A DNA stretch of 64,000 nt, from contig NZ_JAUSBV010000005.1 in NCBI RefSeq assembly GCF_030651915.1, positions 62,001 to 126,000 of the forward strand, given 5' to 3'. Positions 24,310-45,762 of this stretch are shown one piece after another (the stretch's first letter is position 1; the number at the start of each line of letters is the position of its first letter). The translations under genes and the position numbers were made by a program. Under the pieces are notes generated by a model, which saw only the letters and a list, made by a program, of their open reading frames with translations, was not told where the DNA came from and made no database searches. The DNA is from Parvibaculum sp. GTDB lineage: Bacteria; Pseudomonadota; Alphaproteobacteria; Parvibaculales; Parvibaculaceae.

Positions 24310-24759
24310 TCAGGCCCTCTTCTCCCACTTGCCGGCATCGTTCTGCTGCCAGTAGGTCGCATCGTGGCCCTCGGCTTTCAGGACCTTCCAATGCTCGCGC
24401 GCGGCGGCCAGCGCGGCGGCGTCGCGACCGTCAAACATCAGGACGCAGCGCTCATAGCCCGAGAGCGGCCCCGGCCCTGCGCCGTCGACCAGAAACAACA
24501 CTTTGGCGCCGTTGGGATTTTCATCCTCGGTTGTCAGAAAAATCGGTGCCGATTCCGGCGCGCCATCGTCGCGGCTGCCATGCGGCAGAAAGCTCTCATC
24601 GCTATAGGTCCAGAGCGCGTTGTTGAGGGCTTCAAGACGCTCCGGCCCGCCTGCCCGCACCACGGCGCGCCAGCCGCGTTCCAGCGAACGCTCCAGCAAT
24701 TGCGGCAGAACGCGCTCCAACGGCGCGTTCTGCAGATGGTAAAACAGCACTTCTGTCAT
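24310..24759 (-). CDS. holC: DNA polymerase III chi subunit
   Basis: 149 aa. MTEVLFYHLQNAPLERVLPQLLERSL is the usual opening of HolC, followed by LWTYSDESFLPHG and VLFLVDG. Chi links the clamp loader to SSB during replication. The gene begins 19 bp before the pepA stop position in map order (after pepA in transcription), the same pepA-holC order found in many proteobacteria. Its ATG and first codons are part of an 11-bp-period TGACAG repeat (see 24753). There is no ordinary Shine-Dalgarno, so coupling to pepA translation is likely. Confidence 0.92.
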   Translation of the reverse strand: MTEVLFYHLQNAPLERVLPQLLERSLERGWRAVVRAGGPERLEALNNALWTYSDESFLPHGSRDDGAPESAPIFLTTEDENPNGAKVLFLVDGAGPGPLSGYERCVLMFDGRDAAALAAAREHWKVLKAEGHDATYWQQNDAGKWEKRA

Positions 24760-24781
24760 CGTTCTGTCACTGAACTGTCAC
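24753..24781 (+). promoter_or_regulatory. Three CTGTCA(T/C) repeats at 11-bp period across the pepA/holC junction
   Basis: CTGTCAT-CGTT-CTGTCAC-TGAA-CTGTCAC on the plus strand matches the PHO half-site at 7, 6 and 6 of 7 with exact spacing. It covers the pepA stop and the holC start, both read from the minus strand. Part of the pattern is forced by the TGA and the ATG-ACA codons, so a true PhoB site is uncertain. Confidence 0.35.
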
Positions 24782-45093: not shown

Positions 45094-45474
45094 TCAGGCG
45101 CCGCGGCGCGCGTCGAGACTGTAGCGACCGGCGCCGTGGGCGAAGACATAGAGCATGCCGCCGGCGATGGCGAAGTTCTTCAGGAAGGACGGATCCGACA
45201 AGCTCGGATGAAAGATCACGGCCGCCAGCACACAGAAGATCGCGAAGGCGAGCGCCACGAGACGCGCCTGATAACCGATCAGCAGCAGAATGCCGCCGCC
45301 GAGTTCAAGCGCCACCGTGGCCACATAGACGATTTGCGGCAGCGGCAGGCCCTTGGATTCAATGAAACCGATGGTGCCTTCAGCGCCCATCGCCTTGTTG
45401 ATCCCTGCAAGGATGAAAAGCGCGGACAGAAAAATGCGGCCCACAAGGGTCGCGTAGTCATTGGCGGCGTTCAT
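45094..45474 (-). CDS. DoxX family membrane protein
   Basis: 126 aa, four hydrophobic helices, the first carrying GRIFLSALFILAGINKAM, which is the DoxX opening, then PQIVYVATVALELGGGILLL and a LVALAFAIFCVLAAVIFH helix. DoxX-like proteins are small inner-membrane proteins often linked to thiol or oxidative-stress metabolism; the exact role is unknown. Own promoter region shared with the dnaB side. Confidence 0.88.
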   Translation of the reverse strand: MNAANDYATLVGRIFLSALFILAGINKAMGAEGTIGFIESKGLPLPQIVYVATVALELGGGILLLIGYQARLVALAFAIFCVLAAVIFHPSLSDPSFLKNFAIAGGMLYVFAHGAGRYSLDARRGA

Positions 45475-45587
45475 GGAAGTCCCTCCCCCATTGGTTGCAA
45501 CGGGTCGAGCCTAGGCCGTCCGGAGGCGGGGATAAAGCCGGGGAAATGACAGCGCGGCGGCAGCGAAAACGGCTGCGGCCCCCCCCT

Positions 45588-45620
45588 CTGTCACAAAACT
45601 GTCAAAAAACTGTCACAAAC
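45588..45620 (+). promoter_or_regulatory. Triple PHO-box repeat upstream of dnaB
   Basis: CTGTCAC-AAAA, CTGTCAA-AAAA, CTGTCAC-AAAC: three 11-bp units with A-rich 4-bp spacers, the exact architecture of PhoB sites (7-bp CTGTCAT half-sites, 11-bp period). It reads towards dnaB, 217 bp before its ATG, and lies 114 bp behind the start of the divergent DoxX-family gene. No gene lies between except a possible 12-codon ORF at 45694-45732. Confidence 0.65.
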
Positions 45621-45634
45621 GGTGCCGGGCCCGA

Positions 45635-45762
45635 CTTATCCCCCGGGGATAAGCCGACTTATCCCCGTTTTCGCGACTATTCCACAGGGCCCGATGGAAA
45701 ATTCCCGTGACGCGACAGGCGCTTGTGAATGATCTCTCCACTTATCCCCACCCCTGTATAAC
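45635..45762 (+). promoter_or_regulatory. 19-bp palindrome, DnaA-box-like repeats and candidate -10 before dnaB
   Basis: CTTATCCCC-C-GGGGATAAG (45635-45653) is a perfect palindrome. CTTATCCCC recurs at 45658 and 45741; the last extends to TTATCCCCA, one mismatch from the DnaA box TTATCCACA. The 13-mer CCGACTTATCCCC is repeated 23 bp apart (45631, 45654). A candidate -10 TATAAC lies at 45757-45762. No other content was seen in this intergenic stretch. Confidence 0.5.

What the first reader, a model, noticed from the sequence alone, without database searches (positions are those of the whole stretch)
45588..45620. Three-unit PHO box pointing at dnaB
CTGTCAC/CTGTCAA/CTGTCAC at an exact 11-bp period with A-rich spacers matches the PhoB site architecture. 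No phosphate-uptake gene is near; the downstream gene is the replicative helicase. Phosphate-dependent control of dnaB, or of the DoxX gene, would be unexpected.
Basis: partly seen in the sequence, partly recalled or inferred. Interest (0 to 1): 0.62.

Follow-up and report, generated by a model that had tools for sequence, protein, structure and literature searches.

The report
Evenly spaced PhoB-like chromosome sites
The repeat in front of dnaB is not a private switch for that gene but one of about 70 near-identical, evenly spread DNA sites in this bacterium's chromosome, found only in one group of Parvibaculum species, and they look like a chromosome-scale device built on a phosphate-regulator binding motif.

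Summary
The three CTGTCA units at 45588-45615 are real and beyond chance, but not a dnaB device. The genome holds 73 exact triplets; 68 share a composite element: C-run, triplet, CAAA, usually TTATCCCC-type words downstream. The genus is Parvibaculum. The looser triplet occurs 16-74 times in 15 of 27 genomes of the genus, and at most 3 times in any sampled genome outside it. Elements are evenly spaced (means about 50-85 kb), favour convergent gene ends, lack a -10 at fixed distance, and keep place and orientation between species while the core is rewritten to a species consensus. PHO boxes before pstS and a plcP-agt-like pair share the 11-bp architecture; their matrix scores elements nearly as high, so PhoB or a relative is the likely binder. 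Third-position GC skew steps up at elements in two genomes, same trend in a third; a weak lean toward the origin. Best reading: clade-specific, chromosome-scale, non-promoter sites bound by an OmpR/PhoB-type protein. Binder and mechanism are inferred. Phosphate control of dnaB or doxX has little support.

The parts
45547..45552 (-). TGACAG, an inverted CTGTCA half-site; GACAGC words are enriched just upstream of the elements
   Evidence: (46 hits in the -100..0 bin of 68 loci, about 2.5 per bin far away)
45579..45586 (+). C8 run directly before the T that joins the triplet
   Evidence: 97-100% C at the five positions before the T in 68 elements
45588..45594 (+). repeat unit 1 CTGTCAC
45599..45605 (+). 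repeat unit 2 CTGTCAA
45610..45616 (+). repeat unit 3 CTGTCAC, followed by AAA
45636..45643 (+). TTATCCCC word
45645..45652 (-). TTATCCCC word, inverted (reads GGGGATAA on +)
45659..45666 (+). TTATCCCC word; with 45645-45652 an inverted pair
45742..45749 (+). further TTATCCCC word
45094..45474 (-). flanking DoxX-family gene, diverging from the element
   Evidence: PF07681
45837..47330 (+). flanking gene dnaB, replicative helicase
   Evidence: PF03796, PF00772
24753..24780 (+). second triplet in the window, without C-run; its spacers resemble the consensus of sister species, so perhaps an unconverted relic
   Evidence: relic status is inference

Best explanation
The repeat is the core of one member of a dispersed, clade-specific family of about 70 chromosomal sites. 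Shown by sequence: composite make-up, even spacing, conserved positions and orientation, species-wide rewriting of the core, and a step in strand asymmetry at the sites. Inferred: an OmpR/PhoB-family response regulator, most simply PhoB itself, binds the three 11-bp units in tandem, and at least one further protein binds the TTATCCCC-type words. The bound element acts on the chromosome as a whole (nucleoid architecture, replication or segregation), not as the promoter switch of a neighbouring gene. The element near dnaB is there because that intergenic gap is one of the set.
For: Copy number: 73 exact triplets in 3.5 Mb; CCCCT + triplet 65 against 0 reversed. Composite: a TCCCCG-type word within 250 bp of 56 of 68 elements against 1 of 402 control stretches (G000), and 39 of 46 against 5 of 276 (G014) (controls are stretches at fixed places, mostly coding); 72 of the 81 copies of CTTATCCCCG in the genome lie within 350 bp of a triplet with 0-1 mismatch. 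Even spacing: CV 0.61 (G014), 0.62 (G001), 0.53 (G000) against 0.93-0.98 for random placement, P 0.0004 or less in each. Non-promoter: convergent gaps 25 of 64 in G000 (background 11 of 121) and 17 of 45 in G014 (background 14 of 90); no fixed -10. Conservation: 30 of 46 G014 elements share an adjacent gene and orientation with a G000 element (2 opposite, 1 ambiguous), yet variable core positions of orthologous pairs agree no better (0.494) than shuffled pairs (0.498), against 0.82 and 0.70 within a species. GC3 step: +0.102 over +-10 kb, positive at 10 of 10 elements, against +0.008 at 83 control junctions, P 0.0002; +-3 kb, 46 elements +0.050 against 147 controls -0.004, P 0.003 (G014); G000 right-left difference +0.038, P 0.004. 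Binder: PhoB matrix scores.
Against: No binding or transcription data. PhoB, with an unchanged recognition region, is present in the element-free species G012, G002, G006 and G018, and the core consensus drifts (ACGTCA in G017) while the pstS and plcP-like boxes do not, which fits a different or additional binder. The triplets are nearly gone in G012, G002 and G021, so the family is dispensable. The lean toward the origin is weak (41 of 59, 30 of 46, 12 of 14) and absent beyond 1 Mb from it (14 of 23, 10 of 18). The +-3-kb skew step is absent at the 10 divergent G014 elements (-0.013), and at +-6 kb the ten isolated elements give only +0.044. G001 shows the skew form only as an untested trend. 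One downstream gene, a PHO4 phosphate transporter 88 bp from its element (L050), may be truly Pho-controlled.
Confidence: 0.5

Rival explanations
1. Selfish or inert intergenic repeats: PhoB-box-like elements kept alike by short-patch gene conversion or copying, tolerated in harmless gaps, with no function; PhoB binding would be incidental noise.
For: The core is homogenised within species; the C-run form has 0-2 copies in G001, G013 and G022 but 54 and 65 in G042 and G000; nearly lost in three species; E. coli PhoB has many transcriptionally inert sites, there intragenic and not conserved (PMC10294691, abstract and outline seen).
Against: Positions and orientation are conserved and flanks are orthologous, spacing is even, extra half-sites and TCCCCG words lie at varying distances, as if evolved in place rather than copied as a block, and skew steps at elements.
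Confidence: 0.2
2. A true PHO box that controls dnaB and/or doxX under phosphate limitation.
For: High PhoB matrix score; dnaB starts 221 bp downstream; the triplet is kept before dnaB in 13 of 25 other genomes.
Against: 67 further equivalent elements; no -10 at the distance seen at pstS and plcP; the triplet is absent before dnaB in 12 of 25 other genomes that carry dnaB.
Confidence: 0.06
3. Dispersed replication-linked sites: each element is a place where replication can (re)initiate, restart or switch, which leaves an origin-like upward step of GC skew.
For: Upward GC3 step at elements in G014 and G000, for both gene strands in G014, with the same trend in G001; even spacing; an element within about 0.7 kb of the parB match in G000 and G014; helically phased, iteron-like repeats.
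Against: The step is modest and rides on a positive base level; in G001 no element match lies within 60 kb of parB; TTATCCCC is not a DnaA box (TTATCCACA, recalled); element-free sister species exist; no initiator that binds GTCA triplets is known to me (recall).
Confidence: 0.12
4. RNA-level element: a transcription terminator, Rho-loading site or small RNA at gene ends.
For: Often 7-100 bp after a stop codon; inverted TTATCCCC/GGGGATAA pairs in a number of copies; C-rich motif strand.
Against: A strict 11-bp DNA period is not needed by RNA; in 22 of 64 G000 cases the gene on the 5' side points away; no Rfam match reached its threshold in the window stretch (best 22.8 bits against 55).
Confidence: 0.07

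Closest known systems
PHO box / PhoB binding site (pstS, plcP-agt-like pair)
   Same: 11-bp direct repeats with GTCA cores, 4-bp A-rich spacers, three units; matrix scores overlap
   Different: No -10 at fixed distance, mostly not in promoter position, C-run (G000, G042) and TCCCCG words attached, species-specific consensus, about 70 copies
matS/MatP of the enterobacterial Ter region (recalled)
   Same: Dispersed short sites every few tens of kb that organise a chromosome; GTGAC/GTCAC half-sites
   Different: matS is a palindrome confined to Ter; here polar direct repeats over the whole chromosome
KOPS / polar guide motifs (recalled)
   Same: Orientation biased along the ori-ter axis
   Different: KOPS are frequent 8-mers pointing to ter; here 50-70 sites with a weak bias toward ori
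REP/BIME and other dispersed intergenic repeats (recalled)
   Same: Clade-specific, intergenic, near gene 3' ends
   Different: Core not palindromic, evenly spaced, fixed places, core rewritten in place

Membership tests
PHO box (PhoB promoter site) | Tandem 7-bp CTGTCAT-like units at 11-bp period | tested here: met
PHO box (PhoB promoter site) | Takes the place of -35, with a -10 at fixed distance, before a phosphate-regulated gene | tested here: not met
   pstS and plcP-like boxes serve as positive controls
PHO box (PhoB promoter site) | Bound by PhoB-P, neighbour induced at low phosphate | not testable with these tools
   needs ChIP and RNA data
Dispersed chromosome-organising sites (matS, KOPS, parS, Noc sites) | Many copies spread non-randomly over the chromosome | tested here: met
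Dispersed chromosome-organising sites (matS, KOPS, parS, Noc sites) | Relation to the ori-ter axis or replication strand | tested here: inconclusive
   (41/59 P 0.004, 30/46 P 0.054, 12/14 P 0.013; no bias beyond 1 Mb); skew step; terminus assumed opposite parB
Dispersed chromosome-organising sites (matS, KOPS, parS, Noc sites) | Dedicated DNA-binding protein with effect on chromosome layout | not testable with these tools
   no binder identified by experiment
REP/BIME-type repeats | Palindromic units | tested here: not met
   core is three direct repeats; inverted TTATCCCC pairs occur beside it in part of the copies only

The most novel reading that the evidence does not exclude
In one Parvibaculum clade the chromosome is divided into some 45-70 units by composite, rapidly co-evolving sites where replication-linked strand asymmetry switches upward, as at an origin. 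They would be dispersed bacterial replication (re)initiation or strand-switch sites, possibly gated by phosphate status through PhoB.
Probability: 0.12. Interest if true: 0.95.

Novelty: new variant of a known kind. Interest (0 to 1): 0.72.

Why it matters
A PhoB-type motif, familiar as a promoter element, appears to have been turned into an evenly spaced, chromosome-wide set of sites in one young clade, with the core rewritten together at fixed places and with sister species that lack it or nearly lost it. That gives a natural experiment on how chromosome-organising systems arise, how a DNA-binding specificity and its sites co-evolve, and whether phosphate signalling can act on the whole chromosome. 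P. lavamentivorans DS-1, the type strain, carries about 46 elements, so it can be tested.

Tried and rejected
Promoter reading: tested by gap class, -10 position and downstream genes; rejected as the general account. RNA family: nothing above threshold in the window stretch. Mobile repeat inserted at new places: rejected as the main account because 30 of 46 places are orthologous. KOPS-like pointing to ter: the bias is weak and in the other direction. Change of PhoB specificity as cause of the drifting consensus: the recognition stretch is identical in the 9 PhoB proteins aligned; of 11 genomes searched, the incomplete G010 and G021 had no hit over the PhoB cut-off. The PmrA-like regulator beside plcP was looked at as another binder and not pursued. 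Viral contigs: 42 stretches hold the bare triplet pattern; not examined. One search used a mistyped word (ATTATCCCCG, 0 hits) and was replaced. Classical two-replichore skew was sought in 20 stretches of G001 and not seen clearly.

Limits: genes were called with a home-made codon-usage script, not a standard gene finder. The reversed-pattern controls are 0 in 24 of 27 genomes but 3-5 in G001, G013 and G022; as in G000 they may be the elements themselves read out of phase, not checked there. The ten long-range sites were 10 of 46, chosen for distant neighbours, after I had seen the 6-kb skew values of all sites. For spacing, matches under 100 bp apart were merged in G001 (61 to 58), only the four largest contigs of G000 (57 elements) were used, and G014 included the plcP box. 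Four triplets without C-run (three places) and a shifted duplicate were dropped from 73 to reach 68. The matrix left out the G012 pstS box and the weaker boxes of G018 and G006. Control stretches are mostly coding, not matched intergenic DNA.

Full report
Observation. The triplet is exactly as described: CTGTCAC, CTGTCAA, CTGTCAC at 45588, 45599, 45610. The window holds two such triplets with up to 3 mismatches allowed, 45588 and 24753, where 0.04 are expected. The window is G000:C8:62001-126000 of a 3.5-Mb genome that holds 73 exact triplets. The reversed control (3 mismatches allowed) gave 88 hits, but 85 of 86 such hits in the fetched loci overlap a triplet, because AACTGTCA also fits the reversed word. 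CCCCT plus triplet has 65 copies against 0 reversed.

What the copies share. Of the 73, 68 have a run of C before a T and the first unit; one is a shifted duplicate and four lie at three places without C-run. Aligned, the conserved core spans about -9 to +30: C-run, T, three CTGTCA units, A-rich spacers, CAAA. Around it lie GACAGC words upstream and TTATCCCC/GGGGATAA words downstream. TCCCCG-type words occur within 250 bp of 56 of 68 elements against 1 of 402 control stretches in G000, and of 39 of 46 against 5 of 276 in G014; a palindrome like TCCGTGTACGGA (up to 2 mismatches) is near 20 of 68 against 17 of 402, and 11 of 46 against 9 of 276 (controls mostly coding). Of 81 copies of CTTATCCCCG in the genome, 72 lie within 350 bp of a triplet with 0-1 mismatch.

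Who has it. Of four named loci found with the DoxX protein, three are titled Parvibaculum and one only Alphaproteobacteria. G014 is a single contig of 3,914,745 bp, the size printed for P. lavamentivorans DS-1 (PMC3368416, passages read). With the looser pattern YGTCAH-N5-YGTCAH-N5-YGTCAY, 15 of 27 genomes of the genus have 16-74 matches and the other 12 have 0-2; reversed controls are 0 in 24 of 27 and 3-5 in G001, G013 and G022. Among 385 alphaproteobacterial genomes of 276 genera, two of them Parvibaculum, none outside the genus exceeds 3, and the three other genomes of the family have 0. In a DnaB tree of 26 genomes (G023 gave no DnaB match) the carriers fall in one clade of 17 with full support, within which G012, G002 and G021 keep only 1-2 matches (rooted at the midpoint only).

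Position and concerted change. Before dnaB the triplet is present in 13 of 25 other genomes and absent in 12. Comparing G000 with G014, 30 of 46 G014 elements share an adjacent gene and the orientation with a G000 element, 2 are opposite and 1 ambiguous; 26 have shared genes on both sides. Yet the variable core positions of orthologous pairs are no more alike (0.494) than shuffled pairs (0.498), against 0.82 and 0.70 within each species, while the flanks stay orthologous. Each species has its own form: CTGTCACAAAACTGTCA in G000, CTGTCATCGAWCTGTCA in G001, CTGTCATCGAACTGTCA in G014, CGTCATCGAAACGTCA in G017. The C-run form is found 65 times in G000 and 54 in G042 but 0-2 times in G001, G013 and G022. 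So the sites stay and the core is rewritten.

Spacing and context. Distances between elements are too even for chance: CV 0.61, 0.62 and 0.53 in G014, G001 and G000 against 0.97, 0.98 and 0.93 simulated, P 0.0004 or less (merging and contig choice told under Tried and rejected). Convergent gaps are over-represented: 25 of 64 in G000 (background 11 of 121), 17 of 45 in G014 (background 14 of 90); 4 and 2 more are not cleanly intergenic. Of 28 genes that start downstream in the element's direction in G000 I scanned 27 (the 73-codon one in L041 was left out): one is a phosphate gene (PHO4 transporter, L050), one has no family, others are dnaB, citrate synthase, LytB, MraZ, a zinc efflux protein and so on (one search also held three other proteins).

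PHO boxes as controls. Before pstS, the boxes of G000, G001, G014, G017, G011 and G012 share one form; G018 and G006 have weaker ones. Before a metallophosphatase and glycosyltransferase pair that I take for plcP-agt (name from recall; Pfam gives Metallophos; that literature seen as search listing only) a box is kept in 5 of 5 species read, with CATATT about 21 bp downstream in 4 and CATAGT in G014. That these are PhoB targets is inference from family knowledge. A matrix from ten of these boxes gives elements a median of 36.7 (G000, 68), 30.7 (G014, 46) and 27.8 (G017, 16; lowest 14.8), against 31.6-42.1 for the boxes in leave-one-out, 21.6 for the triplet at 24753 and 9.9 for the best other place in the window. 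Elements have no -10 at fixed distance. PhoB's recognition stretch is the same in the 9 PhoB proteins aligned, from element-bearing and element-free species. E. coli PhoB is known to have many transcriptionally inert sites (PMC10294691, abstract and outline read), so binding alone would not prove a function.

Strand asymmetry. Corrected for gene strand, third-position GC skew on the motif strand is positive near elements: mean +0.052 in G000 (51 of 68 positive) and +0.087 in G014 (36 of 46), and higher on the right than on the left (P about 0.0035 in each). Over +-23 kb at 10 isolated G014 elements it averages +0.02 on the left and +0.12 on the right. The +-10-kb step is +0.102, positive at 10 of 10, against +0.008 at 83 control junctions (P 0.0002); at +-6 kb it is only +0.044; at +-3 kb, 46 elements give +0.050 and 147 controls -0.004 (P 0.003), but the 10 divergent elements show none. 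Genes on both strands and fourfold sites agree. In G001, 20 sampled stretches give -0.05 in the 10 kb left and +0.10 in the 10 kb right of the nearest element, with scatter farther out and no test made. parB marks the origin at 2.00 Mb in G001 and 1.409 Mb in G014; elements lean toward it (41 of 59, P 0.004; 30 of 46, P 0.054; 12 of 14 on the parB contig of G000, P 0.013), with the terminus assumed opposite and no lean beyond 1 Mb. An element lies within about 0.7 kb of the parB match in G000 and G014, but none within 60 kb of it in G001.

Interpretation. I think it most likely that an OmpR/PhoB-type protein, simplest PhoB, binds the triplets together with a second factor at the TCCCCG words, for a chromosome-scale purpose. 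Shown: the family, its spacing, conservation, concerted change and skew step. Inferred: binder and purpose. The main rival is a homogenised, functionless repeat family. Phosphate control of dnaB has little support. I found no paper on such sites in searches for Parvibaculum with intergenic, repeat and PhoB (one hit, on ExoR/ChvI), for Parvibaculum lavamentivorans with genome and repeats (8 listed), and for regularly spaced motifs with GC skew (2 listed); only listings were seen apart from the two papers named, and the library lacks most subscription papers.

Noticed in passing
window 24753-24780 (L045): Second triplet at a gene border that looks like pepA-holC (names by inspection only), without C-run or TTATCCCC words, with spacers like the sister-species consensus; similar relic-like triplets at L015:3001 and L061:3001-3039.
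   Followed up: partly
L230:3388 (G000:C2:53388), L145:3001, L233:3557, L231:4111, L232: Conserved PHO box with a -10-like CATATT (CATAGT in L145) before a metallophosphatase-glycosyltransferase pair (likely plcP-agt lipid remodelling); in L230-L233 next to a PmrAB-EptA-like operon (names by inspection).
   Followed up: yes
elements in L030, L049, L054, L065, L069, L128, L140, L154: A palindrome like ATCCGTGTACGGAT recurs near elements (20 of 68 against 17 of 402 control stretches in G000), a possible third binding word.
   Followed up: partly
L032:3001-3040 and its G001 counterpart L163: Four-unit element with C-run and GACAGC arms before a short-chain dehydrogenase gene; the C-run form is present at the G001 counterpart, where it is otherwise rare.
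   Followed up: no
G001 (20 stretches L210-L229): No clear two-replichore GC skew; third-position skew is weak and mostly negative across the sampled contig.
   Followed up: partly
viral contigs, loci L273-L314: 42 viral stretches carry the bare CTGTCA triplet at 11-bp period.
   Followed up: no
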